64,000 nt of DNA from Microbulbifer salipaludis (GTDB lineage: Bacteria; Pseudomonadota; Gammaproteobacteria; Pseudomonadales; Cellvibrionaceae). Positions 1 through 27,354 of the stretch are shown here, in pieces. Made by a program: the position numbers and the translations under genes. Each line of letters opens with the position of its first letter. The stretch's first letter is position 1. Under the pieces are notes generated by a model that ran no database searches, had not been told where the DNA came from, and was given only the letters and a program-made list of their open reading frames with translations. The stretch spans positions 1,178,001 to 1,242,000 of the forward strand of contig NZ_JAEKJR010000002.1 in the NCBI RefSeq assembly GCF_017303155.1, written 5' to 3'.

Positions 1-825
1 AGCGGCGCCTTCGATTTCTACGATGGTGGTGACCTCGCTGCTGAAGAAACCTACGGTGCGCAGTTCCAGCGCGACCTGGGCGCAGCGGGTATCGCGCAGA
101 TGCGCGCCCTGCCAGCCGCGCAAATACTGGCCCAGGCACAGCAGACCTATCTCGGTGACCACGCGGCGGAAGACCAGCGTAATTTTTATCCGGTGCGCGA
201 CGGGCGCGTGCTGCCGCACCTGCCGCGAGATGCCTACCGCCGGCCGCTGAACGGCCAGGCATTGCTCATCGGCTTCAATCGCGATGAGAGTCTGATGTAT
301 GTGGGGCCGTCTGTCCGCGCCGACGACCTTACCAACTGGTGGCAGCAGTACTTCACCGGCGCGATGCCGCAGATTGGTGCGCTGTCTCCAGCGCGCCCGG
401 CGCGCAACCGCATGGCGGAACTGCAGGATGCGACCTGGCAGGACTGCAGCAGCGCGGCGGTGGGTGAACTCGCCGCCCGCCACAGTGACATGCCTGTGTA
501 CCTGTACCGCTTTGACCAGCTACGTGGCACCATGCAGGATAACCCCATCGGTGTTTATCACGGCGCAGAGCTGCCCTATGTGTTTGCTAGCCATGATGCC
601 TGGCTGCCCACGAGCACAGCGGACCGCCGCACCACGGAAGTGATGCTGGGGTACTGGACGAATTTCGCAAAAACCGGCAATCCCAATGGCGACGGCCTGC
701 CTCACTGGCCGCGCTTCCACGGGGATGGCCCGGCGATGCTGCTCAGTGCTGAACCGGGTGCTGGCTCCTGGGACCCGGACGGGCTGTGCGCCCAGCGTAC
801 CGTCGCGTCTGCCCTGAATAGATAA
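1..825 (+). CDS. Carboxylesterase type B, C-terminal part (cut by window edge)
   Basis: The reading frame is open from base 1, so the start and the nucleophile elbow lie outside the window; about 274 residues remain. The visible part has the family's C-terminal landmarks. These are an LIGFNRDES segment (usually G-x-N-x-D-E), the GVYHGAELPYVF segment carrying the catalytic His, and a helix of the M-x-x-Y-W-x-N-F-A-x-T-G-x-P-N type near the end. Family members hydrolyse carboxylic esters and are usually exported. It lies 22 bp before the BCCT transporter gene on the same strand, so the two may be co-transcribed. It would supply ester cleavage before uptake in the island; the substrate is unknown. 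Confidence 0.9.
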   Translation, partial: SGAFDFYDGGDLAAEETYGAQFQRDLGAAGIAQMRALPAAQILAQAQQTYLGDHAAEDQRNFYPVRDGRVLPHLPRDAYRRPLNGQALLIGFNRDESLMYVGPSVRADDLTNWWQQYFTGAMPQIGALSPARPARNRMAELQDATWQDCSSAAVGELAARHSDMPVYLYRFDQLRGTMQDNPIGVYHGAELPYVFASHDAWLPTSTADRRTTEVMLGYWTNFAKTGNPNGDGLPHWPRFHGDGPAMLLSAEPGAGSWDPDGLCAQRTVASALNR

Positions 826-847
826 CAATAATCATTAGACAGAAGTA

Positions 848-2434
848 ATGGCGATGAAAAAGCACAGTGTTGACAAGCCCACCTTTGCACTCGCGGTCGG
901 GGTCATTTTCCTGGTGTGTATGCCGCTGGTGCTGGCACCGGAAACTGGCGGTGCGACGCTAAAGGCTCTACATCAGTGGATTACCCAGCAGTTGGGGCAG
1001 GTTTATATACTGGCGGCCAATGCGGTGCTTATTTTTCTGGGTTGGCTGGCGTTCGGGCGCTTTGGCCAGGTGAAGCTCGGCGATGCCGAGGACAAGCCTG
1101 ATTACAGTACCTTTACCTGGGTGGGTATGCTGTTTTGCGCGGGCGTCGGCGCGGGGTTGATGTATTGGGCTGCCATCGAATGGGCCTTTTATTACGAGCA
1201 GCCACCGATGGGCGCAGAACCCGGCTCCGCCGCCGCGCTGCGTTGGGCCTCCTCCTACGGCATCTTCCACTGGGGACCGAGTGCCTGGGCCTTCTACTGC
1301 CTGCCGGCGGTGGCCATTGCCTATCCCTACTACGTGAAAAAAGTGCCGCTGTTGCGCTTTAGCACTGGTATGCACCATTTTCTCGGCAAGAACACCAGTG
1401 GTGTTACAGCGCGCGGCATCGACCTGATGTTTATGCTGGCGTTGCTGGGTGGTGCTGGCTCTTCGCTGGGCTTTTCCACGCCGATGATCTCCGCCGGCAT
1501 TGCGCGCCTCACCGGACTCGAGCAGGGCTTTGGCCTTGACGCCGCGGTGGTGGTGCTGAGTATCGCGATCTTCGCCGGCAGTGTGTTCTTCGGGCTGGAG
1601 CGCGGCTTCCGCAAACTCAGTGGCTTCAGCGTGCGCCTCGCCATCGGCCTGTTGCTGTTTATCCTGCTGGCTGGGCCCACGGCATTTATCCTCAAGACCG
1701 GTATCAACGCACTGGGTAATGTGCTGCAGAATTTTGTCAGCATGAGCACCTGGACGGAGCCCTTTGCCGACGGCGGCTTCGTCGAGGACTGGACCATGTT
1801 CTACTGGGCTTGGTGGATCGCCTATGCGCCATTTGTTGGCCTGTTCGTGACTCGTATTTCCCGCGGCCGCACCCTGCGCCAGGTGATCGTCGGTATGCTG
1901 GTGTTCGGCAGCCTGGGCTGTTCGCTGTTTTACATCGTGCTCGGCAACCTGTCGCTGTACCACTTTCTCGAGGGCAATGTGGATGTGGTGGCCATCCTGG
2001 GGCAGGGTGGCGGCAAGGACGTTATTGTCGCGGTGCTCGACCAGCTGCCGCTGGCGGCACTGGTGATCGCGGCATTCTCGCTGGTGAGCATCCTGTTCTC
2101 GGCCACCACCTATGACTCCGCTGCGCTGGCACTGGCCGGTAGCGCCACCCGCGAACTGCCCATTGGCGAGAACCCCGCGCGCTGGCACCGGATCAGCTGG
2201 GCGATGATGCTCGGCGTGCTGCCGATCACTCTGCTGTTTGTCGGTGGCCTTACCAGCTTGCAGACGGTGCTGTTGGTCGTGTCGCTGCCGATCCTGGCAA
2301 TCTGCGTGCTGATGGCGGTGTCGCTGGTGTGCAGCCTACAGGCCGGCGAGACTGCCGCCGCGCACGCAGCCGAACAGCCTGCGGATGGCGCTGCCGGGAG
2401 GATGAACGCTGCGGTAGAAGGCGGCGCGCGCTAA
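848..2434 (+). CDS. BCCT-family transporter
   Basis: A 528-residue polytopic inner-membrane protein of the betaine/carnitine/choline transporter family, which import quaternary ammonium or sulfonium zwitterions, mostly with Na+ or H+. The family motif GxGxGLMYWAAIEW lies near residue 95, followed by FGLERGFRKLSG and the strongly conserved FVGLFVTRISRGRTLR near residue 330. The TM8 aromatic box reads W322-W323-x-x-Y326. From memory this resembles the CaiT pattern (Trp-Trp-x-x-Tyr) more than the all-Trp BetP pattern, so the ligand may not be glycine betaine. No long osmosensing C-terminal extension is seen. A second ATG two codons in (854) is an equally good start. Confidence 0.93.
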   Translation: MAMKKHSVDKPTFALAVGVIFLVCMPLVLAPETGGATLKALHQWITQQLGQVYILAANAVLIFLGWLAFGRFGQVKLGDAEDKPDYSTFTWVGMLFCAGVGAGLMYWAAIEWAFYYEQPPMGAEPGSAAALRWASSYGIFHWGPSAWAFYCLPAVAIAYPYYVKKVPLLRFSTGMHHFLGKNTSGVTARGIDLMFMLALLGGAGSSLGFSTPMISAGIARLTGLEQGFGLDAAVVVLSIAIFAGSVFFGLERGFRKLSGFSVRLAIGLLLFILLAGPTAFILKTGINALGNVLQNFVSMSTWTEPFADGGFVEDWTMFYWAWWIAYAPFVGLFVTRISRGRTLRQVIVGMLVFGSLGCSLFYIVLGNLSLYHFLEGNVDVVAILGQGGGKDVIVAVLDQLPLAALVIAAFSLVSILFSATTYDSAALALAGSATRELPIGENPARWHRISWAMMLGVLPITLLFVGGLTSLQTVLLVVSLPILAICVLMAVSLVCSLQAGETAAAHAAEQPADGAAGRMNAAVEGGAR

Positions 2435-2517: not shown

Positions 2518-2546
2518 TTGACTTCGAATGCAAAAGTCGATTTGAT
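2518..2546 (+). promoter_or_regulatory. Promoter with TTCGAA operator, site 1
   Basis: The 14-mer TGACTTCGAATGCA (2519-2532) is the reverse complement of the site found at 4691 and 8234. It overlaps a -35-like TTGACT at 2518-2523; 17 bp further is TTTGAT (2541-2546), a 4/6 match to a -10. It lies 49 bp before the first SnoaL-like gene and after the BCCT gene. Repression by the LacI protein at 9570 is inferred. Confidence 0.6.
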
Positions 2547-3662: not shown

Positions 3663-4676
3663 TCAGCGCCGGGCCTTGTTGAACTCGCGCAGGCGCGCAA
3701 ACACGTCTACACCGAGCTGGTGGTAAACGTCGAGCAGGTCTACCAACACCCAGTTCTCGCGAATTAAGCCGTCCTCGCAGCGCCAGAAATCGAGGCTGCG
3801 CATAGTGATGTTCTGGCCCGCCGGCGCGATGCCGAGCCAGCCGCCGCCGCTCACACTCATGTGCATGCCCGGCCAGGCGGTGAAGCCCACGTAGTCGCCG
3901 TCGGCAAAGATATGCCCGGCGCCGGCATCGCCGACACGGTCGGGCAGGCCGTTGAGGAACGGAATCTGGTGCCAGTTGCGGAACCCGGCAATGCCGCGCC
4001 CGGTGCCGATACCGGAGGGGCCGTACCAGCTGCAGCGCGGGTGCCAGTAGCGTTCCAGCTGCATCGCCTCGGCACCGCCGGTGGCGTAATTGCCCAGCGA
4101 GTCGCACATGTCGTGCACCAGCTGCTGGCTGCGTGCGGCGCGCTCGCGGTCACTGGAGTCGATGGTGAGGCCGTCCTGCGTGGCCGGCCCCGGCACATGC
4201 CATTCGCGTCCGAGGCTCGGCACCATCGGCCAGGCACCCGCCTGCATCATGACCTCGGGAATGTCCCACAGTGCCTGCATCTCCACCACCTTGCCGCCCT
4301 CGAAGCGATAGAACTCGTGAAAGCGCATAGACACCTGGTGGCCGGTGGCGGGGATGTCCAGCCACGGCTTCTCGAAGGATCCGGTGTAGTAACCGCAGCA
4401 GCCCACCCAGTCGGCCCCTTGCGGTGTGCTGCCGGCCATGACAATGGTATCGCGGCGCTCCAGATCGGGGATTGAATCCGCCAGCGGCGCCAGGGCCTGC
4501 TCGTACAGGGCCGCGGGGCCGTCCAGGGTTTCGAAGGGGTAGGCCAGCTGAACCAGCGCGTCGGCGCGGAACAGCGCTCCGAGCTGACGCTGCACCTCGG
4601 CGGGCTCGTAGTCGTACAGGGCGGCGCGCAGGGGGGCGAGGGCGCGCTTGTGTTGCTCGTGCCGGTTGGCAGACAT
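3663..4676 (-). CDS. SnoaL/NTF2-like two-domain protein (paralog B)
   Basis: 337 residues, clearly homologous along its whole length to the proteins at 2581 and 14274. Shared landmarks are AYPFETLDGP near residue 40, PDLERRD near 70, W-Y-G-P-S-G-I-G in the second half and ENWVLVDLLD near the C-terminus. Two SnoaL-like units are present and there is no signal peptide. A GGAGG ribosome site lies 5 bases before the ATG. Operator site 2 is only 14 bases upstream of that ATG on this strand, so a bound regulator would sit across the untranslated leader. It converges on paralog A, which may reflect an inverted duplication. Reaction not known. Confidence 0.8.
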   Translation of the reverse strand: MSANRHEQHKRALAPLRAALYDYEPAEVQRQLGALFRADALVQLAYPFETLDGPAALYEQALAPLADSIPDLERRDTIVMAGSTPQGADWVGCCGYYTGSFEKPWLDIPATGHQVSMRFHEFYRFEGGKVVEMQALWDIPEVMMQAGAWPMVPSLGREWHVPGPATQDGLTIDSSDRERAARSQQLVHDMCDSLGNYATGGAEAMQLERYWHPRCSWYGPSGIGTGRGIAGFRNWHQIPFLNGLPDRVGDAGAGHIFADGDYVGFTAWPGMHMSVSGGGWLGIAPAGQNITMRSLDFWRCEDGLIRENWVLVDLLDVYHQLGVDVFARLREFNKARR

Positions 4677-4689: not shown

Positions 4690-4717
4690 TTGCATTCGAA
4701 GTCAAAAGTGCTAGGAT
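4690..4717. promoter_or_regulatory. TTCGAA operator, site 2, in divergent promoter region
   Basis: TGCATTCGAAGTCA at 4691-4704 lies between divergent paralog B (minus) and the alpha/beta hydrolase at 4789 (plus). For the plus strand, TTGCAT (4690-4695) and TAGGAT (4712-4717) with a 16-bp spacer make a plausible promoter, with the operator over the -35 and spacer. For the minus strand the operator lies just before the ribosome site. Confidence 0.6.
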
Positions 4718-4788: not shown

Positions 4789-5712
4789 ATGAATACATGG
4801 AACTGCGCGCAACGCCTGCTGTGTCGCGTTTTGCTGACCCTGATGGCCGCTGTCGGTGTGCTGGCCCAAGCTCAGACACAGGCCCAGACGCAGCCCCAGA
4901 CGCAGCCCCAGACGCAGCCCCAGACGCAGCCCCAGACGCAGGCCAGGTTTGTACTGGGGCCGGTGAGTCGCGACGGGCAGGGGTTGGGGCACCAGCTGGC
5001 GAGCTACCCGGTGGATGGCCTGCAGCAGTTTGCATTGCTGCTGTGGCCGGCGGGTAACCGGCCGGCCGCAGGATGGCCGGTGGTGCTATTTGCCCATGGT
5101 TTTCATCCCGAGCCGCGCAATTACGGCCGGCTGGCCTCTGGCGAGACCTCGCGTCCCGGGGATTACTACCGCGGCCTGGTCACTGCCTACGCGCGCGCCG
5201 GTTTCCTGGTGGTGGCGCCGGACTACCGCGGCCACAACGATTCGGAGGGCGCAGAATACACGCGCCGCCCGCTCGCAGCGCGCTGGTATGCGCGGGATTA
5301 CGCTGCGGCCCTCGACGGGGTCGAGGGGCTCGAGGGCATTGACCGCGCGCGGGTGTTTGCGGTGGGGCATTCCATGGGCGGCAGCGTGATCGCCCACGCG
5401 GCCAGCGCACTGGCCGGGCGGGTACGGGCCGTTTCCCTGTGGTCCACCGCCGCCGTGAGCCGCGCGCTCACGGCCGGGGATGGTGGCCCCGGCGGATTTG
5501 CGGCGCTGGATGCGCCGCTGTTACTGCATCACGGCGTTGCCGACCCGGTGACGCCGTTCGCGAACGCCCAGGATCTTGTGCTGGCGCGCCACGAACAGGG
5601 CACGCCCTACGCCCTGTATCGCTACGATACGGATGCACACCTGCTGGAAGGGGAGGATTTGCGCAAGGCGCTTGAACTTGATTTCGAGGCTTTTTCTACC
5701 TCGGGGCACTAG
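4789..5712 (+). CDS. Exported alpha/beta hydrolase with QTQP repeat linker
   Basis: 307 residues. An N-terminal signal peptide (basic start, hydrophobic 12-26, likely cleavage after VLA) is followed directly by a low-complexity Q-T-Q-P linker coded by the 12-bp repeat at 4873. The catalytic domain follows: oxyanion region FAHGFHPEPRN, nucleophile elbow G-H-S-M-G-G, Asp in HHGVADPVTP and His in TDAHLLEG. The fold and triad match dienelactone-hydrolase or peptidase-S9-like esterases. It should act in the periplasm or outside the cell. Operator site 2 is 85 bp upstream, so it is probably part of the regulon; the ester substrate is unknown. Confidence 0.85.
   Translation: MNTWNCAQRLLCRVLLTLMAAVGVLAQAQTQAQTQPQTQPQTQPQTQPQTQARFVLGPVSRDGQGLGHQLASYPVDGLQQFALLLWPAGNRPAAGWPVVLFAHGFHPEPRNYGRLASGETSRPGDYYRGLVTAYARAGFLVVAPDYRGHNDSEGAEYTRRPLAARWYARDYAAALDGVEGLEGIDRARVFAVGHSMGGSVIAHAASALAGRVRAVSLWSTAAVSRALTAGDGGPGGFAALDAPLLLHHGVADPVTPFANAQDLVLARHEQGTPYALYRYDTDAHLLEGEDLRKALELDFEAFSTSGH
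4873..4944 (+). repeat. 12-bp tandem repeat, six units
   Basis: Six consecutive 12-bp units, the middle four identical (CAGACGCAGCCC), with the first and last variant. The unit length is a multiple of three, so copy-number change would lengthen or shorten the Q-T-Q-P linker without a frameshift. Confidence 0.9.
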
Positions 5713-5762: not shown

Positions 5763-6521
5763 CTACTGCGCGGTCCAGCCGCCGTCCACCTTGAGGCTGT
5801 CGCCGGTGGTGAGGCTGGCGAGATCGGAGGCCAGGTAGGTCACCGCGTTGGCCACTTCCTGGGTGTTGCCCACGCGCGCCATGGGAATCTTGCTGATGAC
5901 TTCCTCGTAGAACGCCTTGTTTTCAAACATGGGCGCGGTCAGCGGCGTGCTGATAAAAGTCGGGGCCACAGAATTGACGCGCACACCCTGCGGCGCCAGC
6001 TCCACAGCCATGGCCTTGGTCAGCCCTTCGATGGCGTGCTTGGTCATGCAGTAGACGGTGCGGTTGGCGGCGCCGATGTGGCCCATCTGCGAGGTGATGT
6101 TGACGATCGAACCGCTGCCCTTGCGCAGCATGACCTCGGCGGCCGCCTGCGCCGACAGAAACGCAGCGCGCACGTTCAGGTTGAGCATCAGGTCAAGGGT
6201 GTCCTCGCTCACCTCGGTGATGGGCATTGGCTTGTTGGTGCCCACATTGTTGACCAGTACATCCAGCTGCGGCAGCGCGCGAATCCGCGCGGTGAAGTCG
6301 CCGGCGGTGACATCGGTCGCCCAGGTCTCGATCTCGCCGCCGGTCTCGGCGGCCTCTGCCGCGAGTGCGCCGAGGTCATCGGGGTTGCGAGCAACCGCAA
6401 TGACGTGGGCCCCGCAGGCCGCCAGTGACAGGGCGCAGGCCTTGCCGATGCCCTTGCTCGCACCGGTGACGAGGGCCACCTTGCCGGAGAGGTCAAAAGC
6501 GGGACGGTTTGGATTACTCAT
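5763..6521 (-). CDS. Short-chain dehydrogenase/reductase (SDR)
   Basis: 252 residues, a classical SDR. It has the T19-G-A-S-K-G-I-G cofactor loop, NNVG in place of the usual NNAG, a serine in the NITS strand and the Y-x-x-x-K catalytic pair in VYCMTK; the C-terminus ends in LKVDGGWTAQ. The enzyme would oxidise or reduce a secondary alcohol/ketone with NAD(P). The ATG overlaps the stop of the upstream lipoprotein hydrolase by 4 bases (ATGA), so the two are translationally coupled. The frame runs further upstream, but that part is a shadow of the neighbouring gene. It may oxidise a hydroxy acid made by the HisD-like enzyme at 8306; this is inference. Confidence 0.92.
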   Translation of the reverse strand: MSNPNRPAFDLSGKVALVTGASKGIGKACALSLAACGAHVIAVARNPDDLGALAAEAAETGGEIETWATDVTAGDFTARIRALPQLDVLVNNVGTNKPMPITEVSEDTLDLMLNLNVRAAFLSAQAAAEVMLRKGSGSIVNITSQMGHIGAANRTVYCMTKHAIEGLTKAMAVELAPQGVRVNSVAPTFISTPLTAPMFENKAFYEEVISKIPMARVGNTQEVANAVTYLASDLASLTTGDSLKVDGGWTAQ

Positions 6522-8020
6522 TGGTGGGCCTCTTGTTTGGTCTGGGTTTGTTCGCTCTCGGGTTGTCGAGTCTGTGCGGGATTTGCCTGCGCCGGTGCGC
6601 AGCGGAATCCCGCCATGTCCGCACCGGTGAACAGGCGGGTGTCCCGCGCCAGCGCGCAGGGCACCCCGGGCACGGTGCCGGCCGGTGAGAACCAGGCGTG
6701 GCGGCTCACCTTCAGGGAGTGGGTGGTGCCCGGGTATTCGAAGGCGTGGGCTTCGCCGCCGCCGTTGGCAATGGCGCTCTGCAGGGTGCGGTTCCACACG
6801 GGCAGCGAATAGTAATCGCGGTCGGAGAAATGCAGGGCCAGCGGCGTGCGAATATGTTTGGCCTGTGGGTAGGCGCTCACCGCCCGGAGTCCGGCCCGCA
6901 CCCGCGGGTCGTGCTGCACGCTGAGGCGCCCGTCTTCGTCGCGGGTGATGCTGAACGTCGCATCGTCGATACTGAGGCTGTAGCGGTTGATGGTGTCGTA
7001 CATCTGCCGGTACTTGTCGGCGAGCGCTTCCTCGACCGTTGCCACTGGCCAGCTGTCGCGCTGCCAGGTCCACTGCGCGGGGTGTGGCGTGCTGATCCAG
7101 TCTGGTGGAAAGCCAAACACAAAGTCCGCATTGGTGCGGCCGTCCGCGCCGGTGGCGGTGCCGTTCCAGCTGCCGTCCCCGGCGAGAAAGGCCTGCGCGC
7201 TGGCCCCCATGGGGCCAAAGGTATTGGCCTGGGTGAACTTGTCCGGGATGTTGCCGGACCAGATGGAGGCGGCGTGGAAGCGGCCGGTGTTGGGGTTGTC
7301 GCCAGTGATCGCGAGCGCGGTGAGTGCCGCGTCACCGCCCTGGGAGTGGCCGAGCAGGTTGACCCGCTCGAGGTCCAGTTGCGGCGCCGCGAGGTCGTGC
7401 CGGGCCCAGTCCAGTGCGGCGTAACCGGGCAGTGCCGCCAGCAGGTTAACCAGGTCGATGGCGTAGAAGGTCGGCGACAGGTAGCTGCCGTTGTCCCACA
7501 CCTGCATGAATTCGTGGCCTTCGGCGGGGGTTCCGCCCACCGTGCCGTGGCCGCGGAAGCCGGGGCTCAATACCGCGAAGCCGGCGCGGGTCAGCTCGGC
7601 GACGATCTCGCCGTAGAAGGAGTCGCTGTTCAGGCCGAACTGGTAATCGGGTGCGGCCTCGATGCCGACCCAGCCGTGGCTGAAGAGAATTACCGGGAAG
7701 CCGTCGTGCGGCGGCGTTCCTCGCGGAATATCGATGCGCGTGTATACCCTGAGCCCGTCGGAGTCGTAGCGGGCCAGCAGGGTATCGGCGTGGGGCAGGG
7801 GCGCCGGGCTCGGTCGCTCCAGCAGTGCCAATTCGCTCTGGTACTGGCGCGCGCGCAGGTGGTCGATGCCGAGGGCTGCGAGGTCGTCGATACACACTGC
7901 CGGGTTGTTGTGCGGGCACTGATCGTTGGCGCCGTCACTAATAGGGTCGCCGGTAGGGTCGCTGGTGCCGCCGCAACCGACGGCCAGCATAACGATGGCG
8001 CTCAGGAAGGCGTGTTTCAT
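6518..8020 (-). CDS. Alpha/beta hydrolase lipoprotein
   Basis: 500 residues. The start at 8020 is chosen because it gives a signal peptide with lipobox LAVGC (lipidated Cys16); the longer frame upstream lacks such a start and covers the regulatory region. The hydrolase core shows FSHGWVG (oxyanion strand), nucleophile elbow G-H-S-Q-G-G, an Asp in FSDRDYY and His in PGTTHSLKV. After the signal there is a short Ser/Asp/Gly-rich spacer. It should be anchored in a membrane facing the periplasm or outside and cleave an ester. It is first in a two-gene unit with the SDR, read divergently from the HisD-like gene, with operator site 3 at 8144. Confidence 0.88.
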   Translation of the reverse strand: MKHAFLSAIVMLAVGCGGTSDPTGDPISDGANDQCPHNNPAVCIDDLAALGIDHLRARQYQSELALLERPSPAPLPHADTLLARYDSDGLRVYTRIDIPRGTPPHDGFPVILFSHGWVGIEAAPDYQFGLNSDSFYGEIVAELTRAGFAVLSPGFRGHGTVGGTPAEGHEFMQVWDNGSYLSPTFYAIDLVNLLAALPGYAALDWARHDLAAPQLDLERVNLLGHSQGGDAALTALAITGDNPNTGRFHAASIWSGNIPDKFTQANTFGPMGASAQAFLAGDGSWNGTATGADGRTNADFVFGFPPDWISTPHPAQWTWQRDSWPVATVEEALADKYRQMYDTINRYSLSIDDATFSITRDEDGRLSVQHDPRVRAGLRAVSAYPQAKHIRTPLALHFSDRDYYSLPVWNRTLQSAIANGGGEAHAFEYPGTTHSLKVSRHAWFSPAGTVPGVPCALARDTRLFTGADMAGFRCAPAQANPAQTRQPESEQTQTKQEAHQ

Positions 8021-8143
8021 GGTCTGGCCCGTTATTCTCGTTGCTGTTTGATCGTCGGGCTGGCTATCAGGCTCGCGGCGCCCGTGGTCGCTGCCGGGGC
8101 AGCATATCGCAACGCCCGGCGAGCAGGCGACTGTGGCGGATAA

Positions 8144-8157
8144 TGATTTCGAAGTCA
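8144..8157. promoter_or_regulatory. TTCGAA operator, site 3
   Basis: TGATTTCGAAGTCA, 124 bp before the start of the minus-strand lipoprotein hydrolase. On the minus strand it overlaps TTGACT, a good -35-like hexamer. Together with site 4 it flanks the divergent promoter region. Confidence 0.6.
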
Positions 8158-8233
8158 ATTGGTGCTTGGGGCCGCCTGATTAGTCACTGACGGCAAGGGG
8201 GAATCGAGTCGCGATTCTTTTTGCATTGAATAT

Positions 8234-8247
8234 TGCATTCGAAGTCA
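8234..8247. promoter_or_regulatory. TTCGAA operator, site 4
   Basis: TGCATTCGAAGTCA, identical to site 2, 59 bp before the HisD-like gene. Its centre is 90 bp from that of site 3. A pair of LacI-type sites in one divergent region could allow looping, which is inference. Confidence 0.62.
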
Positions 8248-8305
8248 TTGCGGGTTTACCATCCGGTTTTTCCACATAAAAAGCACAATTTCCGAGAGGC
8301 GAGTT

Positions 8306-13095: not shown

Positions 13096-13124
13096 TTGTA
13101 TCAATTTTGCATTCGAAGTACATT
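13096..13124 (+). promoter_or_regulatory. Promoter with TTCGAA operator, site 6
   Basis: TTGTAT (13096-13101), 17-bp spacer, TACATT (13119-13124). The operator TGCATTCGAAGTAC (13108-13121) occupies the spacer and enters the -10. It is 76 bp before the cupin gene and between divergent genes. The arrangement is the same as at 18112 and 24913. Confidence 0.68.
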
Positions 13125-16872: not shown

Positions 16873-16884
16873 ATTTGATTGTGC

Positions 16885-16913
16885 GGGCGCACCCGATGGT
16901 GCGCCCATTTTTT
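16885..16913 (+). terminator. Terminator inside the cupin-SSS operon, before paralog D
   Basis: GGGCGCACC, loop CGAT, GGTGCGCCC, then A and six T. It begins 12 bases after the SSS stop and only about 20 bases separate it from the ATG of paralog D, so transcription of the last gene probably depends on partial read-through. Confidence 0.88.
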
Positions 16914-16931
16914 GTAGAGTTTGTACAAGCC

Positions 16932-18111: not shown

Positions 18112-18140
18112 TTGACTGCTTTTTGCATCCGAAGTACAAG
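18112..18140 (+). promoter_or_regulatory. Promoter with TTCGAA-type operator, site 7, for the first TonB receptor
   Basis: TTGACT (18112-18117), 17-bp spacer, TACAAG (18135-18140). The operator TGCATCCGAAGTAC (18124-18137) fills the spacer. The gene starts 116 bp after the -10, leaving a long leader. Confidence 0.7.
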
Positions 18141-20743: not shown

Positions 20744-20782
20744 AGGGGCTTTCCCTTTCGGCCAGGGATGGCTGTTACGCTG

Positions 20783-20812
20783 AAAAGCCACGCCTCTGCG
20801 CGTGGCTTTTTT
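20783..20812 (+). terminator. Terminator after TonB receptor 1
   Basis: GCCACGC and GCGTGGC (7-bp stem extended by AAAA/TTTT) with a 6-nt loop and a T-run, 40 bases after the stop. It lies just before the start of the sulfotransferase gene at 20861. Confidence 0.88.
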
Positions 20813-20860
20813 CTTGGCCTGTTTCCCGATTCACTTATTGGCACGCGACGCTCGATCACT

Positions 20861-22726
20861 ATGCAATTTCAAGATTTACTGCAATCCGGACTTTCACTCT
20901 ACCGCCAGGGCCAGCTGGCCGAGGCCGAGCAAAAGTTCCGCGCGGTACTGGCGCAGGATGCCAGTAATGTGGCTGCGCTCAATTTACTCGGCATGCTGTG
21001 CGTGAACAGCGAGCGAGCGGAAGAGGCGGTGACGCTGATTTCCAGCGCGCTGGAAGTCCGGCCGCAGGACCACCAGGCGCTGAGTAACCTCGGCCTCGCC
21101 TACCGCAAAATCGGGCAGCTCGAGCAGGCGGAGAAAAGTCTGCGCAGCGCGCTGAATCTGAACGCCGAAAATCCGCCCGCCTGGAATAATTTGGGCAGCG
21201 TGTTCAAGGACACCGGTCGGTTTCAGGAGGCGGTGAAATGCTTCGATGAGGCGCTGAAAAGGAATCCAAATTTTGCGCTGTGCTGGAGCAACCTGGCGCA
21301 TGCGTTTGTGGAGCTGGACGAGTTGGGCAATGCCAAAAGGGCGGTGGAGCGCGCCCTGCAACTGGATCCGTCCCTGGCCGAGGCGCACTACAACCGCGGC
21401 GAAATCTGCCGCCGCACATCGCACTACGCTGAGGCCGTCAGGGCCTATGAAACCGCCCTGCAGCACAACCCGGATTTTTACGAGGCCCTGCTCGGCCTCG
21501 CCACCGCGCAGCGGGAGGCGGAGGACACGCAGGCGGCGCTGGACACCCTGCGGCAGCTGTTGCGCCGCAAGCCCGACCACGCCCAGGCGCACTGCAGTCT
21601 GGGCATTATTTATGAGCAGACCGGCGACAAGCCCCGCGCCGTGGAATGCTTTAAGGAGGCGATCCGGCTGGCGCCCGACGTGATCACGCCGCATTACCAG
21701 CTGGCACAAATCAAGGGGCGCACCAGTACGCCGGAGGAGCTGGCGCACATGGAAAAGCTGTGCGCGCGGCCGGGTATTGAAAACGACGAAGCCGATGCCG
21801 CCTACCTGTATTTCGGGCTGGGAGAGGCCTACGACAAAAATGGTGAAAGTGAGAAAGCGTTCGCCGCGTGGAGCAAAGCTAACGCCTTCCGCGCCAAGCG
21901 TTTTCCCTACGACGAGCAAAAACGCGCGGCCGATAAAGATGCGCTCCTCACCAATGCCACGCAGTTCAAGACGCGTGCGGAGGCCTTTGCCGTCCCGATT
22001 GCTGCGCCGCGAATGTTGTTTGTTATCGGCATGCCGCGCTCGGGGACCTCTCTGACTGATCAGGTACTGGCTTCGCACTCTGCCATTGGCAGCCTGGGTG
22101 AGGTGAGTTTCGCCTATGACATGACCAACCGCGTGCAGGCGCTCACCGGTACTGCCTATCCCGCTGGCATGTCTGGTTTGACCGAACAACAGCTGGCGCA
22201 GCTCGCGGGCGAGTACCGGCAGCGGATCCCACAGAAGCTGGCGGGTTCGGCGATCGTGCTGGACAAGACGCCGATGAACTATCAGTGCCTGGGCCTGTTG
22301 GCTGAAGTCTTTCCTGACGCTCGGTTTATTCACTGCCAGCGCAACCCCATCGATAACTGCTTCTCGATCTTCAAGTTGCCATTCGCCCACAATCAGGAGT
22401 ACTCCCACAGCCTGGCCGCACTGGCGCACCACTACGGGCTGTACGAAGACATGATGGATTGTTGGAAAACCCTGTATCCCGGCCGGATCCTGGACGTGCG
22501 CTATGAGGACACTGTGGCCGATCTGGAAGCCCAGGCGCGGGGCATGGCGGCGTTTATCGGCGTTGACTTCGAGGAAGCCATGCTGGCGTTCTACGAAGCC
22601 AGGCGGCAGGTGCGCACGCCCAGTGCCAGCCAGGTGCGCCAGCCGATCTACCGGAGTGCGGTTGGGGCCTGGCGCCCCTACGAGCAGCACCTGCAGCCAT
22701 TGATCGAGGCGCTTGCAGAAAAGTAG
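20861..22726 (+). CDS. TPR-repeat sulfotransferase (1)
   Basis: 621 residues; the ATG at 20861 is chosen because the frame upstream runs through the terminator hairpin. Residues 1-310 are tetratricopeptide repeats (units of about 34 residues with G/A-x-x-Y, A-x-x-x-Y/F and P patterns). From about residue 380 a sulfotransferase domain follows: 5'-phosphosulfate loop VIGMPRSGTSLTDQVLASH, 3'-phosphate site near CQRNPIDNCFSIF, and a C-terminal RTPSASQVRQPIY segment. The family transfers sulfate from PAPS to tyrosines or other acceptors; the TPR part would hold the target. It is convergent with a second protein of the same design. Confidence 0.9.
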   Translation: MQFQDLLQSGLSLYRQGQLAEAEQKFRAVLAQDASNVAALNLLGMLCVNSERAEEAVTLISSALEVRPQDHQALSNLGLAYRKIGQLEQAEKSLRSALNLNAENPPAWNNLGSVFKDTGRFQEAVKCFDEALKRNPNFALCWSNLAHAFVELDELGNAKRAVERALQLDPSLAEAHYNRGEICRRTSHYAEAVRAYETALQHNPDFYEALLGLATAQREAEDTQAALDTLRQLLRRKPDHAQAHCSLGIIYEQTGDKPRAVECFKEAIRLAPDVITPHYQLAQIKGRTSTPEELAHMEKLCARPGIENDEADAAYLYFGLGEAYDKNGESEKAFAAWSKANAFRAKRFPYDEQKRAADKDALLTNATQFKTRAEAFAVPIAAPRMLFVIGMPRSGTSLTDQVLASHSAIGSLGEVSFAYDMTNRVQALTGTAYPAGMSGLTEQQLAQLAGEYRQRIPQKLAGSAIVLDKTPMNYQCLGLLAEVFPDARFIHCQRNPIDNCFSIFKLPFAHNQEYSHSLAALAHHYGLYEDMMDCWKTLYPGRILDVRYEDTVADLEAQARGMAAFIGVDFEEAMLAFYEARRQVRTPSASQVRQPIYRSAVGAWRPYEQHLQPLIEALAEK

Positions 22727-22755
22727 CGTCGGACAGCTTGTGCCGGGCGTAGATT

Positions 22756-24714
22756 CTAATCGGGCGTGACATCTAACCGGGGCGCGACTTTTGCAAGCCG
22801 CGCCTGATACACGGCCTCACTGGCCTCGAGCGCCTGCAGCAGCGGCGCCAGTGGCTCCCGGTACTTTCTCCAGCGGCCGCAGGCACTCGTACTCATTGGC
22901 GCGCGCACCTGTGCGGCGCTGGGTGTACGCACCGCGCGCTCTGTTAGGTGCGGGCTCAGGCAGGTGCGATCGAAGGACAGGTCGAGTCCCGCGAGCAGCG
23001 CGCGAATAGTGGGCTCGGGATGGGTCACCAGTGCCTCGTAGGTGAGTCGCTGGCAGCGCCCGGGCAGGGCAGTAAGCCAGTGCGCCTGCAGCCTGTCGAA
23101 TTCCCGCACCCGGTGGGCCAGATGGTCAAGGCGGTGAGCGTAGTCGTGCCGCGCCGATAGCGGGTGCTGCAGGATCGATACGCAGGTATCGAGCGGTGCG
23201 CGTTCACACAGCACAAAGCGCGCCTCCGGCAGTAGCACCGCCAGCATGCCCACCAGGGCGTGGTTGGCGGGGCTGGTTTCCACGATGACCTTTTCGCTCG
23301 TCCTTTCTCTGTCGGCTGCGGTCGTATCGCCGTTCAGAGCGGCCTCCGCGCGACTGCGCAACTGTTCCCGCAACTGCCGCCGCAGTGCCGGTAAAAGCCC
23401 GTCGGGGAGTGCGCCCCAGTCCACCGGGTACTCGCCACCACAAGACTCGCGCAGCGTCGCTTCGATGGAAGTGGCAATGCCGGTCTCGCCCAGTGCACAG
23501 GTGGCCGGGTGACTGGCCAGCACCTGCTCTGCCAGGCTGGTGCCTGAGCGCGGCATCCCGACAATAAACACGACTGTGGGTAGCGTCGTTTCCGATGCGG
23601 CGGGCGCGCCCCCGGTTCGCACTAGCTCAGCCGGGTGACTGGCGACCAGTTGCGCGCCCTGGGCGCTGTCGCGAGCCGGGTCGTAAACGCTGGTCCGTGC
23701 GGCGATACGCCGCCCGGCCAGCACCGTTTCCATCGCTTCTCGCGGTTCACCCAGCTGGTCCTGCACCCGCCCCAGGGCCAGGTGCAGGCGGTAGCGCGCC
23801 AGCTCCGCCAGCCCATCGTCTGCCAATGCGTCCCGCAGCGACTGTGCATCTGCCGCGGCCAGGTCAGCGCTCTTCAGGAACGCCAGGTGAAACAGCGCGT
23901 CTGGCTGGTGCGGATGGCGGTGCAGGGTCTCGCGCAGTTCCCGCTCGGCTTCATCCAGCAGGCCGAGATATTCCAGTTGTACCGCCAAATTGGTGCGCGC
24001 GGCCGCGTGGCTCGGGTCGATCTCCAGCGCACGCCGGTAGGCCGCTGCCGCTTCCGCGGTGCGGTTCTGGCGCACCAGCGCCACACCCAAGCAGTGGTGC
24101 AGTTCCGCGCTGCGGGGAAAGACGTGCAGGGCAGACCGCAATAGCTGCTCGGCTTTCTGCGGCTGGCCCATGCCCAACAGAGCTTCGGCGAGACCGCGAG
24201 CGACACCGGGCGAACGGTTGCCGGCGGCTGCGGCAGCATCGAAATGGGTGCGGGCGCGGGCGGGTATCTTCTCCAGTTCCAGCCAGCCCAGGTTCTCGTG
24301 CAGCCCGGGGTGGCGGGGGGCGATGCTGAGGCCGCGCTCCAGCAACGGGCGCGCCTCATCGGTGCGGCCCAGCAGGCGCAGGCAGTTGCCGGCGGCATTG
24401 AGAAAGTCGGGGTTGCGGGCATCGTGGTGCAGGCACCGCTCGAATTCCAGTAGGGCCGCACCGGACTGGCCCTGCTGGGCCAGCGCCGCGCCCAGGTTGA
24501 AGCGCACGGCCGCATCTTGCGGGGTGAGTGCGGTGGCGCGGCGCAGGAGGGCTTCCGCACGCGGCCACTCGCGGCGGCGCAGCAGAAGCTCCCCGGCGAG
24601 GGCATAGGTCGCCGCCGGCGGGGCGGGCTGCTGCAGCGCCTGCAGGCAGCTGGCGAGGGCGCCGTCGTTGTCGCCGCGTCGGTAGAGTTCGAGGGCTCGG
24701 GGCAGATGCTTCAT
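22756..24714 (-). CDS. TPR-repeat sulfotransferase (2)
   Basis: 652 residues. The ATG at 24714 is preferred to the more upstream 24789, because the extra stretch would be coded by the degenerate operator at 24736 and is not TPR-like. TPR repeats cover about residues 1-330. The sulfotransferase domain starts near 380 with IVGMPRSGTSLAEQVLASHP, has CERAPLDTCVSILQHPL as the 3'-phosphate site and RTPSAAQVRAPM near the end. The architecture equals that of the gene at 20861, and the two converge with 29 bases between stops. It is divergent from TonB receptor 2. Target unknown; an outer-membrane or exported protein is plausible. Confidence 0.9.
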   Translation of the reverse strand: MKHLPRALELYRRGDNDGALASCLQALQQPAPPAATYALAGELLLRRREWPRAEALLRRATALTPQDAAVRFNLGAALAQQGQSGAALLEFERCLHHDARNPDFLNAAGNCLRLLGRTDEARPLLERGLSIAPRHPGLHENLGWLELEKIPARARTHFDAAAAAGNRSPGVARGLAEALLGMGQPQKAEQLLRSALHVFPRSAELHHCLGVALVRQNRTAEAAAAYRRALEIDPSHAAARTNLAVQLEYLGLLDEAERELRETLHRHPHQPDALFHLAFLKSADLAAADAQSLRDALADDGLAELARYRLHLALGRVQDQLGEPREAMETVLAGRRIAARTSVYDPARDSAQGAQLVASHPAELVRTGGAPAASETTLPTVVFIVGMPRSGTSLAEQVLASHPATCALGETGIATSIEATLRESCGGEYPVDWGALPDGLLPALRRQLREQLRSRAEAALNGDTTAADRERTSEKVIVETSPANHALVGMLAVLLPEARFVLCERAPLDTCVSILQHPLSARHDYAHRLDHLAHRVREFDRLQAHWLTALPGRCQRLTYEALVTHPEPTIRALLAGLDLSFDRTCLSPHLTERAVRTPSAAQVRAPMSTSACGRWRKYREPLAPLLQALEASEAVYQARLAKVAPRLDVTPD

Positions 24715-24735
24715 CCCATCGATTACGCCTTCTTG

Positions 24736-24749
24736 TGGTTCCGAAGTCA
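24736..24749. promoter_or_regulatory. Degenerate TTCGAA-type operator, site 8
   Basis: TGGTTCCGAAGTCA keeps 11 of 14 positions of TGCATTCGAAGTCA, including the central CG and the right half. It is 22 bp upstream of the chosen start of the minus-strand sulfotransferase. Confidence 0.4.
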
Positions 24750-24912
24750 ACAAATGGCTAGAAAGCTGCGCAAGAAGAGCTGTTCCCATCCAGTTAGCAT
24801 GCTGCCATTTTCAATGGCTTTAGCGGGGGTTTCTGCATAAAAATTTCAGTTTTTGCCCGTTATATGGCGTTTAACTCTGCAGGTGGTGAGATTGATATCG
24901 ATCAATCGATGT

Positions 24913-24941
24913 TTGACAGCGTTTTGAATTCGAAGTACAAA
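24913..24941 (+). promoter_or_regulatory. Promoter with TTCGAA operator, site 9, for TonB receptor 2
   Basis: A consensus -35 TTGACA (24913-24918), 17-bp spacer and TACAAA (24936-24941). The operator TGAATTCGAAGTAC (24925-24938) occupies the spacer. This is the clearest promoter of the island and shows the same geometry as sites 6 and 7. Confidence 0.75.
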
Positions 24942-25003: not shown

Positions 25004-27298
25004 ATGCAAATGACGAGGAAGGCGCTGTATCTGGGCATCAGCCTGGCGATTTCCGGGGGGGCAATGGCCCAGCAGGACGCCCAGTCCGAGGACAAGGCCA
25101 AGGCCGGCGGCGCCATCGAGGAGCTGACCGTCACCGCCACCAAGCGCGAAGCCAGCGTGCAGGATGTTTCCGTATCCGTGACCGCGCTCGGCGAGGAGGC
25201 CCTGAAGATGGGCGGTATTGAGGATGTATCCCGCCTCGAGAACCTGGTTCCCGGCATGCAGTTCGGTCAGTCCGGTAGCGAAGTGCGCCTGGCCATTCGC
25301 GGTACTCGCACCAACAATGTTGGCTCCGAGGCCGAACAGGTGGTGGGTATCTTCGAGGACGGCGTCTACGTTCCCACCACCACCCAGGCCACCGGCGCCT
25401 ATGTCGATGTGGAGCGCGTTGAAGTTTTGCGCGGCCCACAGGGCACCCTGTACGGCCGCAACACATTCGGCGGCACCATCAATATTCATACCCGCGCCCC
25501 GGACTTCGACTCCGTCAATGGCTATGTGTCCGCGCTGGGGGGCTCCTATGACCGCCACAAGTTTGAGGGCGCGATGAATGTCCCCATCACCGATACCCTG
25601 GCGGTGCGCTTCGCCATGATGGATGAAGCGCATGACGGTTACATTGAGAATACCGTCGTTAACGGCTCTGCCGACGACATGAACGACAAAGACATCAGCT
25701 ACTTCCGCGGCAGCCTGCGCTGGCAGCCGATGGACGAGCTGGATATCACCCTGCGTGCCGGCACCTCTGACCAGGGCGGCAATGGCTCCGCTATCTGGGG
25801 CTACCAGCAGATCGGTGCCTACCGCGACGGCGTCTATGTGGACGGTCACCAGTTCGCACCGGACGACGCTTCCGACAATTTTGACCAGGGCCCGTGGAAG
25901 GTTGCTCGCAATATGGCGTCCAGCGTAGACCTGCAATCCGACTTCGCCACGTTGGCGGTGAAGGCCGATCTGGGCTTTGCATCGCTGCAGTACACCGGCA
26001 ACTACACCCAGTTTGACGGTGAGCAAACTTACGACCCGGATTACACCGATGGCGGTGACGGAGACACCAGTGGTTTCGTCGGCTGGGTTTCCGATCAGAA
26101 CACCCGCTCCCACGAACTGCAGCTGAGCTCCAACGGCGACGGTGCGCTGGAGTGGATGTTGGGCGCTTACTGGTTCGAGCAGGCCAGTGGCTGGAACTGG
26201 CTGGAGCGCTCCAGTGGCACGCCTGAAATTCCGCACTGGGATAACCAGGGCGATTACACCAGTGATTCCGTGGGCTATTTCGGCCACGCTACGCTCCACG
26301 CCACCGAAGACCTGCGTTTCGTCGCTGGTCTGCGCTATGCCGAGGATTCCAAGCAGCAGCGCGACCCGCTCGACTGGAGCACCTGGCGTATCGAGGGTGA
26401 TGATGTGGTGGTGGATGCACTGGAAGGACAGGGCGTACCCGGTGAGTGGGACGACATCCTGTGGAAGGGTGCGGTCGAGTTCGACCTGAACGACGACCAG
26501 ATGGTTTACGGCCAGGTTTCTACCGGTTACCGCGCTGGTGGTATCAATTTCGTGCGGGAAGGGGTTCCTCTGACCTATGACCCGGAGACCGTCAAGGCCT
26601 GGGAAATTGGCTACAAGAGTGCCTGGTTCGACAATGCGCTGGTGTTTAATGCGGCGGCCTACCTGAACCAGTATCGCAATATGCAAGCCCAGTCGTTCGT
26701 GGTGCTGAATGGCACAGCCAGCGAATTCACCGAAAACGGCGGTTCACTGGATTCCACCGGCCTGGAGCTTGAGGCCACCTGGATTCCGGCAGAGAACTGG
26801 CGCATCTCCGCTTCCGCGGCTTTCATGAACGCGGAGTTTGATCGCTACGAGGTTTCCAAGGTTCAGGGGCTGGGCAGCCTGGATGGTCGCCAGGACTTGA
26901 CTGACCCGGATGCACCGCTGCTCGATCTGAAGGGTTACAGCCCCGCACTGTCACCGGATATGACCCTCGGCCTGCAGGTCAGCTACGACTTCCTGCTGAA
27001 CGATGGCAGCCGTATCCGTCCGTACCTGCAGACCTATTACTCCGCTGACTACTATGCCTACGACATCAACGTCGAGGGAGCAAAGCAGGACGCCTACACC
27101 AAGACCGACCTGCGCCTGATCTGGGAGTCCCCGTCTGCATCTACCGAGGTACAGGCCTTTGTGATGAACCTGGAAGACGAGGCAGTGCTGAACCGCGTGG
27201 TGGTCTTCAACCCGAGTGCCGACCCGAGCATCGCTTCCCTGCAGGCCAACTTTGGCAACCCGCGCACCTGGGGCATGAACGTCAGCTACCACTTCTGA
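25004..27298 (+). CDS. TonB-dependent outer-membrane receptor 2
   Basis: 764 residues. The signal peptide ends near AMAQQ, the TonB-box-like region is IEELTVTATKREA (about 32-44), and the plug carries VERVEVLRGPQGTLYGRNTFGGTINI. The beta-barrel ends with NVSYHF, the terminal Phe rule. The sequence is of the general siderophore/organic-ligand receptor type and only distantly like receptor 1, so it may bind a different form of the substrate. A ribosome site AGGAGAG lies upstream of the ATG. The gene is monocistronic, with its own terminator and operator site 9. Confidence 0.95.
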   Translation: MQMTRKALYLGISLAISGGAMAQQDAQSEDKAKAGGAIEELTVTATKREASVQDVSVSVTALGEEALKMGGIEDVSRLENLVPGMQFGQSGSEVRLAIRGTRTNNVGSEAEQVVGIFEDGVYVPTTTQATGAYVDVERVEVLRGPQGTLYGRNTFGGTINIHTRAPDFDSVNGYVSALGGSYDRHKFEGAMNVPITDTLAVRFAMMDEAHDGYIENTVVNGSADDMNDKDISYFRGSLRWQPMDELDITLRAGTSDQGGNGSAIWGYQQIGAYRDGVYVDGHQFAPDDASDNFDQGPWKVARNMASSVDLQSDFATLAVKADLGFASLQYTGNYTQFDGEQTYDPDYTDGGDGDTSGFVGWVSDQNTRSHELQLSSNGDGALEWMLGAYWFEQASGWNWLERSSGTPEIPHWDNQGDYTSDSVGYFGHATLHATEDLRFVAGLRYAEDSKQQRDPLDWSTWRIEGDDVVVDALEGQGVPGEWDDILWKGAVEFDLNDDQMVYGQVSTGYRAGGINFVREGVPLTYDPETVKAWEIGYKSAWFDNALVFNAAAYLNQYRNMQAQSFVVLNGTASEFTENGGSLDSTGLELEATWIPAENWRISASAAFMNAEFDRYEVSKVQGLGSLDGRQDLTDPDAPLLDLKGYSPALSPDMTLGLQVSYDFLLNDGSRIRPYLQTYYSADYYAYDINVEGAKQDAYTKTDLRLIWESPSASTEVQAFVMNLEDEAVLNRVVVFNPSADPSIASLQANFGNPRTWGMNVSYHF

Positions 27299-27330
27299 GT
27301 TTCTCTCTTGTTTGTACCGTGAACAATTTG

Positions 27331-27354
27331 CCCGGCTAGTGCCGGGCTTTTTTG
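27331..27354 (+). terminator. Terminator after TonB receptor 2
   Basis: GCCCGGC, loop TAGT, GCCGGGC and six T, 32 bases after the stop. It marks the right end of the catabolic island. Confidence 0.92.

What the first reader, a model, noticed from the sequence alone, without database searches (positions are those of the whole stretch)
1..27354. Undescribed catabolic island: receptors, esterases, diol-type dehydrogenase, lactonase, aldolase and four SnoaL-like proteins
The gene set gives a coherent route: outer-membrane import (two TonB receptors), ester cleavage outside or in the periplasm (three hydrolases), inner-membrane import (SSS, BCCT), oxidation (HisD-like, SDR), lactone hydrolysis (COG3618) and aldol cleavage (HpcH/HpaI). 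I do not recognise this combination with four double SnoaL proteins and a double cupin as a described pathway. A plausible substrate class is a polyhydroxylated or sugar-acid-like compound carrying an ester, perhaps an algal or microbial natural product.
Basis: inference. Interest (0 to 1): 0.85.

Follow-up and report, generated by a model that had tools for sequence, protein, structure and literature searches.

The report
LacI-controlled catabolic island, substrate unknown
A marine bacterium carries a cluster of genes, apparently switched by one repressor and found in reshuffled form in many other bacteria, that very probably lets it eat one particular kind of natural compound whose identity is not yet known.

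Summary
The gene set is real and more than a chance neighbourhood. The host is a Microbulbifer. A 16-bp LacI-type operator, TTGCATTCGAAGTCAA, occurs 8 times (up to 3 mismatches), all between 2,518 and 24,939; 0.36 expected. The genome's four best copies are here. It marks a regulon from SnoaA (2,581) to TBDT2 (27,298). The esterase and BCCT at 1-2,434 have no operator and are missing from relatives, so the left border was wrong. Two TPR-sulfotransferases (20,768-24,789) were not listed.

Of 71 related loci of at least 12 kb, 52 have the operator. HpcH, cupin, alpha/beta hydrolase, SnoaL and SSS genes occur in 21-43 of these 52 and in 0 of 19 without it. The HisD-like enzyme is nearest to DHPS dehydrogenase HpsN, but the sulfonate-binding His is absent in it and in 71 of 71 close relatives.

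Best reading: a catabolic regulon in which the HisD-like enzyme turns -C(OH)-CH2OH into -C(OH)-COOH and an aldolase then releases pyruvate. Expression, reactions and substrate are unproven. Mycosporine-like amino acids are the boldest reading left open. No published description was found in the searches made.

The parts
2518..2533 (-). LacI-type operator, 0 mismatches, before SnoaA
2581..3588 (+). SnoaA, SnoaL-type protein (two-domain by alignment)
3663..4676 (-). SnoaB, double SnoaL protein
4690..4705 (+). operator, 0 mismatches, between SnoaB and hyd1
4789..5712 (+). hyd1, alpha/beta hydrolase with signal-like N-terminus; optional in relatives
5763..6521 (-). SDR family oxidoreductase
   Evidence: start by reading of the frame
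6518..8020 (-). hyd2, alpha/beta hydrolase-like, lipoprotein-like N-terminus by reading; no NCBIfam match; optional in relatives
8143..8158 (+). operator, 3 mismatches, between hyd2 and HisDL
8233..8248 (+). operator, 1 mismatch, before HisDL
8306..9595 (+). HisDL, histidinol-dehydrogenase-fold enzyme, nearest to HpsN but with GKYPL in place of GRY(A/S)H
9570..10619 (+). LacI-family regulator, presumed repressor of the island
   Evidence: start by reading of the frame
10654..10669 (+). operator, 3 mismatches, overlapping the start of abh
10658..11404 (+). abh, alpha/beta hydrolase (PcaD-like); start uncertain
11401..12162 (+). HpcH/HpaI-family aldolase
12152..13042 (-). COG3618-type amidohydrolase (lactonase-like); optional in relatives
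   Evidence: start by reading of the frame
13107..13122 (+). operator, 2 mismatches, between COG3618 and cupin
13197..14246 (+). double cupin, distant relative of quercetinases
14274..15269 (+). SnoaC, double SnoaL protein
15262..16872 (+). SSS sodium/solute symporter
16875..17990 (+). SnoaD, double SnoaL protein; start uncertain
18123..18138 (+). operator, 3 mismatches, before TBDT1
18257..20743 (+). TBDT1, TonB-dependent receptor
20768..22726 (+). TPR-sulfotransferase 1
22756..24789 (-). TPR-sulfotransferase 2
24924..24939 (+). operator, 3 mismatches, before TBDT2
25004..27298 (+). TBDT2, TonB-dependent receptor; right end of the island

Best explanation
Window 2,518 to about 27,354 is an accessory, LacI-controlled catabolic regulon for one class of compound. 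The repressor (9,570-10,619) sits on operators TTGCATTCGAAGTCAA before the transcription units and lets go when the substrate or an early product binds. Import is by TBDT1/TBDT2 across the outer membrane and SSS across the inner one; TRAP, MFS or ABC systems are found in its stead in relatives. The core enzymes are HisDL, SDR, double cupin, a cytoplasmic alpha/beta hydrolase and the HpcH aldolase. Proposed chemistry: the cupin opens an enediol or diketone with oxygen, the hydrolase finishes the cut, HisDL oxidises -C(OH)-CH2OH in four electrons to -C(OH)-COOH, and the aldolase splits the resulting 4-hydroxy-2-oxo acid to pyruvate and a second oxo acid. The SnoaL proteins remove or rearrange substituents. 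Shown by sequence: gene content, operator, conservation, absence of the HpsN histidine. Inferred: that this LacI binds this operator, every reaction, their order, and the substrate.
For: Operator: 8 sites in the window, 0.36 expected, 0 of 100 shuffles reach 8; best four of the genome are in the island; 172 positions against 9 for the reversed pattern in 80 related loci, 59 of 80 with at least one. Content follows the operator: HpcH 43, cupin 40, abh 39, SnoaC 33, SnoaB 31, SnoaD 31, SSS 30, SnoaA 21 of 52 operator loci, each 0 of 19 others. LacI helix VSQS(A/T)VSR seen in 49 of 50 clustered homologues. Smallest annotated set is LacI | HisDL-SDR-MFS-hydrolase-aldolase-cupin on a Klebsiella plasmid. 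HisDL keeps the catalytic and metal-binding motifs and is nearest to HpsN, which makes R-DHPS into R-sulfolactate (PMC11382572, passages). The aldolase is in the HpcH/HpaI family; in three alphaproteobacterial plasmid clusters an RraA-family gene is listed instead.
Against: No expression or binding data. The LacI helix is common in the family by recall, and L045 has it without an operator. The clusters on Roseibium, Martelella, Ruegeria and Sinorhizobium plasmids show no convincing operator (0-1 weak sites each). The cupin's match to quercetinase covers one domain and plant storage proteins rank among the hits; its usual fourth metal ligand is not in place, so it may not be a dioxygenase. SDR is not enriched with the operator (38 of 52 against 12 of 19). 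Many HisDL genes lie in quite other catabolic contexts.
Confidence: 0.55

Rival explanations
1. Sugar-acid pathway: the substrate is an aldonate or a sugar lactone. Lactonases open it, HisDL oxidises the terminal CH2OH to an aldarate-type acid, SnoaL or cupin proteins dehydrate or isomerise it, and the GarL-like aldolase gives pyruvate and tartronate semialdehyde or glyoxylate.
For: LacI regulator; carbohydrate-type ABC transporters in relatives; the aldolase scores best with GarL in NCBIfam, though below its cut-off (133 against 407 bits); COG3618 scores best with L-fucono-1,5-lactonase, also below cut-off (92 against 400).
Against: No classical sugar-acid dehydratase was recognised in the island. 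It does not explain the serine lyase and MetE-like genes in relatives.
Confidence: 0.3
2. Mycosporine-like amino acid or gadusol breakdown: SnoaL proteins release serine and glycine, the bicupin cuts the demethylated ring, HisDL makes the hydroxymethyl into a carboxylate, and the aldolase yields pyruvate plus oxaloacetate.
For: L-serine ammonia-lyase (TIGR00720, 621 bits against cut-off 345) stands directly behind the operator in L048, L074, L081 and L183 and behind a regulated receptor in L085; a glycine-transporter-family gene follows it in L048, with a homologue in L181; MetE-like gene in 23 of 59 operator loci and 0 of 21 others. Review: Vibrio harveyi suggested to hydrolyse shinorine and porphyra-334 (PMC3083659, passages).
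Against: The serine lyase is in only 4 of 59 operator loci, too few to differ from 0 of 21. No MetE-like hit in the window's genome (an empty answer without a positive control). An amidase and soil hosts such as Sinorhizobium in relatives are not predicted.
Confidence: 0.18
3. Aromatic or flavonoid-like compound: the bicupin is a quercetinase-like ring-cleaving enzyme.
For: Cupin profile nearest to bacterial quercetin 2,3-dioxygenase; HisDL also lies in aromatic-type clusters of Hymenobacter and sphingomonads.
Against: No ring hydroxylase or protocatechuate gene was recognised in the island; those other clusters have single cupins or none and no operator.
Confidence: 0.08
4. DHPS (2,3-dihydroxypropanesulfonate) breakdown by an HpsN.
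For: HpsN structures are the best PDB match of HisDL (400.6 bits against 284.1 for the best histidinol dehydrogenase).
Against: His126 and the GRY(A/S)H motif are absent in the window protein and in 71 of 71 relatives above 60% identity. HpsO, HpsP and sulfolyase genes were not searched for.
Confidence: 0.04
5. Chance neighbourhood without a common function.
For: Gene order is reshuffled between lineages.
Against: Operator, partition of content, co-occurrence and synteny.
Confidence: 0.02

Closest known systems
HpsN, sulfopropanediol (DHPS) 3-dehydrogenase, and the hps clusters
   Same: Fold, catalytic and metal motifs, NAD-type four-electron oxidation expected; often beside SDR genes and a local regulator
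   Different: GKYPL/GKYPM/GRYPM instead of GRY(A/S)H; accompanied here by cupin, SnoaL doubles and an HpcH aldolase
Histidinol dehydrogenase (HisD)
   Same: Same superfamily; Leu at the position of HpsN His126 is also reported as usual for HisD (PMC11382572, passages)
   Different: Weaker match; a second HisD-like gene elsewhere in the genome, 37% identical, is the likely biosynthetic one; no other his genes recognised in the island
HpcH/HpaI aldolases such as GarL and HpaI
   Same: Family and length; expected product pyruvate
   Different: All curated equivalog cut-offs missed, so substrate not assignable
Bacterial quercetin 2,3-dioxygenase and other bicupins
   Same: Two cupin domains; nearest solved relatives by profile
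   Different: Weak match over one domain; fourth metal ligand not in place
LacI-controlled sugar catabolic regulons
   Same: Local LacI regulator with repeated palindrome-like operators, transporters plus enzymes
   Different: Gene content with SnoaL doubles, HisDL and bicupin; no paper on it in the searches made

Membership tests
HpsN (DHPS 3-dehydrogenase) | Closest in sequence to HpsN among solved HisD-fold enzymes | tested here: met
HpsN (DHPS 3-dehydrogenase) | GRY(A/S)H motif with sulfonate-binding His126 | tested here: not met
   window GKYPL; 57 GKYPL, 12 GKYPM, 2 GRYPM of 71 relatives (motif)
HpsN (DHPS 3-dehydrogenase) | Asp352-Lys353 and Glu318-His319 equivalents | tested here: met
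   GDK in 71 of 71; the window has GDK and ASEH
HpsN (DHPS 3-dehydrogenase) | Company of sulfolyase genes (suyAB, xsc or cuyA) | not tested
   none was recognised in the island; the genome was not searched for them
Biosynthetic HisD | Sole or his-operon histidinol dehydrogenase of the genome | tested here: not met
   second HisD-like gene at G000:C2:516,968; no other his gene recognised in the island
HpcH/HpaI aldolase | Family profile above the curated cut-off | tested here: met
   PF03328, 87 bits against 25
GarL (2-dehydro-3-deoxyglucarate aldolase) | Equivalog cut-off | tested here: not met
   133 against 407 bits
L-fucono-1,5-lactonase | Equivalog cut-off | tested here: not met
   92 against 400 bits
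Quercetinase-type cupin dioxygenase | Four-residue metal site HxH, E, H | tested here: inconclusive
   H81, H83, E87 invariant in 27 of 27; fourth His not in place by reading
LacI-type regulon | Repeated operator before several units beside a lacI gene | tested here: met
LacI-type regulon | Binding and derepression | not testable with these tools
   needs gel shift and a lacI deletion
MAA catabolic pathway (hypothetical) | Serine-, glycine- and methyl-handling genes under the same operator | tested here: inconclusive
   present in some relatives, not among the operator-bearing units of the window

The most novel reading that the evidence does not exclude
This regulon is a bacterial pathway for breaking down mycosporine-like amino acids, the sunscreens of algae and cyanobacteria: SnoaL proteins strip serine and glycine, the bicupin cuts the demethylated reductone ring, the HisD-like enzyme turns the ring's hydroxymethyl group into a carboxylate, giving 4-carboxy-4-hydroxy-2-oxoadipate, and an HpcH or RraA aldolase yields pyruvate plus oxaloacetate. 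I know of no described genes for this (literature searches, listings and one review's passages).
Probability: 0.18. Interest if true: 0.92.

Novelty: new variant of a known kind. Interest (0 to 1): 0.6.

Why it matters
It defines, by a shared operator rather than by eye, a catabolic regulon present in bacteria of several classes and habitats, whose key dehydrogenase is often annotated histidinol dehydrogenase in public records. It sets a subgroup of HisD-fold dehydrogenases apart from HpsN by a testable residue, gives several double-SnoaL families a pathway context, and makes the substrate findable with one reporter strain. If the substrate is a mycosporine-like amino acid, it would open the fate of a major class of aquatic sunscreens to genetics.

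Tried and rejected
DHPS breakdown was the first idea after and was dropped on the missing His126. A glycine-betaine link through BCCT was dropped because BCCT has no operator and is absent from relatives. I first read the M. flavimaris island as lying at another chromosomal place because its SRAP gene is on another contig; this was corrected, as both islands adjoin the LysR-SHMT-gcv locus. Off-locus operator matches next to isocitrate dehydrogenase and a tRNA synthetase in G009, DUF3604/TetR in G241, and inside a gene in G265 look unrelated; off-locus matches before receptor/TPR-sulfotransferase pairs and SnoaB/hyd1 pairs in G042 and G079 fit the regulon. The 38 kb left of the window hold one weak site (13.9 bits), inside or at the start of a TPR-sulfotransferase gene; I do not count it.

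Insertion point: in congener G320 SRAP and GNAT adjoin LysR-SHMT-gcv without an island, while the pseudouridine synthase gene lies at the other end; the next 6.5 kb of that genome has no match in ours, so the exact site is not known.

Literature searches. Of PMC11382572 I saw the outline with abstract and passages, of PMC11131964 and PMC3083659 passages; all other papers only as listings.

Rows dropped and limits: 9 of 80 loci shorter than 12 kb are left out of the 71-locus counts. One search used identity of at least 35% and coverage above 40%; one search had no identity limit, so its counts differ. SnoaA, SnoaB and SnoaC cross-match, so their counts overlap. One search keeps the best 80 of 579 relatives. 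One search counts palindromic sites on both strands (210 against 10); one search merges them (172 against 9). The matrix leaves out the two Microbulbifer loci, but its sites were picked with the window's pattern. The 36 proteins scanned together were chosen from 106 candidates. Plasmid gene tables are incomplete, so absence of a gene there is weak.
Full report
What is there. The window lies at G000:C2:1,178,001-1,242,000. The closest public relative of its HisD-like protein (HisDL) is in Microbulbifer flavimaris, 98% identical, and that genome is in the same genus as ours, so the host is a Microbulbifer. They add two TPR-sulfotransferases (20,768-24,789) and show the esterase at 1-825 to be the end of a 550-aa carboxylesterase that starts outside the window.

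A shared operator. Intergenic stretches were scanned for palindromes and one 16-mer kept appearing. TTGCATTCGAAGTCAA has 8 matches at up to 3 mismatches in 64 kb; dinucleotide shuffles give 0.36 on average and at most 4. Seven lie before SnoaA, between SnoaB and hyd1, between hyd2 and HisDL (two), between COG3618 and cupin, and before TBDT1 and TBDT2; one overlaps the start of abh. The whole genome has 29 matches against 21 for the backwards pattern, so most 3-mismatch sites elsewhere are noise, but the four with 0-2 mismatches are all in the island. There is none in the 18.9 kb ending at window position 900. With a matrix from 160 sites of 57 other loci the eight sites score 18.6-30.5 bits, and the best position elsewhere in the window 10.2; those 160 sites were picked with the window's pattern, so this is not an independent test.

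The same operator elsewhere. In the 80 related loci kept from the species-genome collection (best 80 of 579 relatives) there are 172 operator positions against 9 for the reversed control; 59 of 80 loci have at least one and 45 at least two. Record titles include Microbulbifer, Pseudohalioglobus, Kineobactrum, Pseudoalteromonas, Colwellia, Vibrio, Photobacterium, Hyphomonadaceae, Erythrobacter and Sphingopyxis. An operator stands within 400 nt upstream of HisDL in 41 of 71 loci with the gene, of receptors nearest to TBDT2 in 19 of 23, SnoaA 14 of 19, cupin 17 of 41, SSS 12 of 30, the MetE-like gene 5 of 21, TRAP DctP 4 of 4. The LacI homologues show the helix VSQS(A/T)VSR in 49 of 50 clustered proteins; in L106 it was not seen in the part printed, and L045 has it without an operator. 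Klebsiella, Salmonella and Novosphingobium EMRT-2 plasmid loci carry close variants; the clusters on Roseibium, Martelella, Ruegeria and Sinorhizobium plasmids have 0-1 weak sites each, so their regulators may read another site.

Content follows the operator. Of 71 loci of at least 12 kb, 52 have an operator and 19 none. HpcH 43, cupin 40, abh 39, SnoaC 33, SnoaB 31, SnoaD 31, SSS 30, SnoaA 21 and COG3618 12 of 52, each 0 of 19. LacI is 41 of 52 against 4 of 19. SDR, 38 of 52 against 12 of 19, does not differ. Receptors at 35% identity or more to TBDT1 and TBDT2 are in 3 and 6 of 52, TPR-sulfotransferase 1 in 3, hyd1 in 3, hyd2 in 6, none of these significant. BCCT and the carboxylesterase are 0 of 52. 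In 293 genomes of the order HisDL occurs in 33, SnoaD in 21 and the cupin in 21; SnoaD and HisDL share 20, cupin and HisDL 20, SnoaD and cupin 19.

An accessory island. Of 48 Microbulbifer genomes, 2 have HisDL; strain NKW57 from the other collection is a third carrier. The M. flavimaris copy aligns, in pieces of at least 250 bases, from window 2,686 to 22,734 and from 24,910 to 27,354 at 75-85%, with nothing further left. There the LysR-SHMT-serine dehydratase-gcvTHP operon lies between the two TPR-sulfotransferases; in the window it lies right of the island, behind SRAP, GNAT and a pseudouridine synthase gene. Congener G320, which has no HisDL, keeps that operon, so it is older in the genus than the island and its place inside the M. 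flavimaris island may be chance.

The HisD-like enzyme. Its best solved matches are DHPS 3-dehydrogenases, 400.6 bits, ahead of histidinol dehydrogenases, 284.1. A structure paper names G-R-Y-A/S-H, whose final His126 recognises the sulfonate, as the mark of HpsN (PMC11382572, passages). The window protein reads GKYPL. Of 71 relatives above 60% identity 57 read GKYPL, 12 GKYPM and 2 GRYPM; all 71 keep GDK. By its motifs it should work like HisD and HpsN, but it is not filed as an HpsN. The plasmid collection has 183 records with a match, and many of the 60 listed are annotated hisD; their neighbourhoods vary widely. HisDL is thus a tool of several pathways, and the cupin-aldolase-SnoaL set marks this one.

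The other steps. The cupin profile's best solved match is bacterial quercetin 2,3-dioxygenase (E 9.4e-10, second domain); cupins of unknown function and plant storage proteins follow, then acireductone dioxygenase (9e-4) and gentisate dioxygenase (7e-3), so a dioxygenase is only suggested. H81, H83 and E87 are invariant in 27 of 27. The aldolase is an HpcH/HpaI protein. In Roseibium, Martelella and Sinorhizobium clusters an RraA-family gene is listed and no aldolase/citrate-lyase gene; Hellea L044 has an RraA-like gene and no HpcH in the 15 kb held. By recall, members of both families cleave 4-hydroxy-2-oxo acids to pyruvate, which points to such an intermediate. The smallest annotated set, on a Klebsiella plasmid, has LacI, HisDL, SDR, MFS, hydrolase, aldolase and cupin and no listed SnoaL protein, so the SnoaL proteins are probably for decorated substrates.

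What the substrate may be. Related clusters add a MetE-like gene (PF01717; 23 of 59 operator loci, 0 of 21 others; also annotated beside the cupin in a coral Ruegeria). Some add L-serine ammonia-lyase (TIGR00720; 4 of 59 against 0 of 21, too few to test, plus L183). The operator stands directly before that gene in L048, L074, L081 and L183; in L085 the gene follows a receptor that has the operator. A gene of the glycine-transporter family follows it in L048, with a 39% homologue behind SnoaB in L181. Serine, perhaps glycine, a methyl group and a C(OH)-CH2OH group together fit mycosporine-like amino acids, whose structures I recall; oxidation of a cleaved ring would give 4-carboxy-4-hydroxy-2-oxoadipate. 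A review says that Vibrio harveyi was suggested to hydrolyse shinorine and porphyra-334 (PMC3083659, passages). Against this stand the rarity of the serine lyase, no MetE-like hit in the window's genome, and soil hosts and amidase genes among relatives. I give it 0.18. A sugar-acid reading explains the regulator, transporters, lactonase and aldolase type but not the serine and methyl genes; I give it 0.3.

Verdict. The regulon is well supported by sequence, the chemistry is inferred, and the substrate is open. No description of this gene set was found in searches.

Noticed in passing
30924-38075, with LysR at 29961-30830: SHMT, L-serine dehydratase and gcvT-gcvH-gcvP in one run. In M. flavimaris this operon sits inside the island, between the two TPR-sulfotransferases (L186).
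   Followed up: partly
L118 (G000:C2:1160001-1178900): Left of the window: GH2 beta-galactosidase, two TonB receptors, a CE2-type esterase, two SDRs, an SMP-30 gluconolactonase, a TPR-sulfotransferase, a zinc-type dehydrogenase and the carboxylesterase; no operator at up to 3 mismatches, so a second unit.
   Followed up: partly
20768-24789; L174, L176, L177: TPR-sulfotransferases stand beside TonB receptors here and at separate operator-bearing places in other genomes; why a sulfotransferase travels with a receptor is unexplained.
   Followed up: partly
L100:19330-20697, L110:15580-16887: A second HisDL subgroup, 45% identical, reading GRFPL and SDK at the two motifs, lies in the same clusters; further hisD genes with GGRYPLLS or GGRFPLLS are in L187, L188 and L191.
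   Followed up: partly
L122, L114, L115: HisDL with SDR, FAH-family and FAD-monooxygenase or VOC genes in aromatic-type clusters of Hymenobacter, Novosphingobium and Blastomonas; no operator there.
   Followed up: no
L113, L192: Salmonella and Klebsiella plasmids carry LacI and HisDL divergently with the TTGCATTCGAATGCAA-type operator between them.
   Followed up: partly
L053:17872-18768 and seven other loci (cluster c13): A family of about 285 aa follows SnoaD in 8 of 59 operator loci and 0 of 21 others; the member scanned (L075) has no Pfam match.
   Followed up: no
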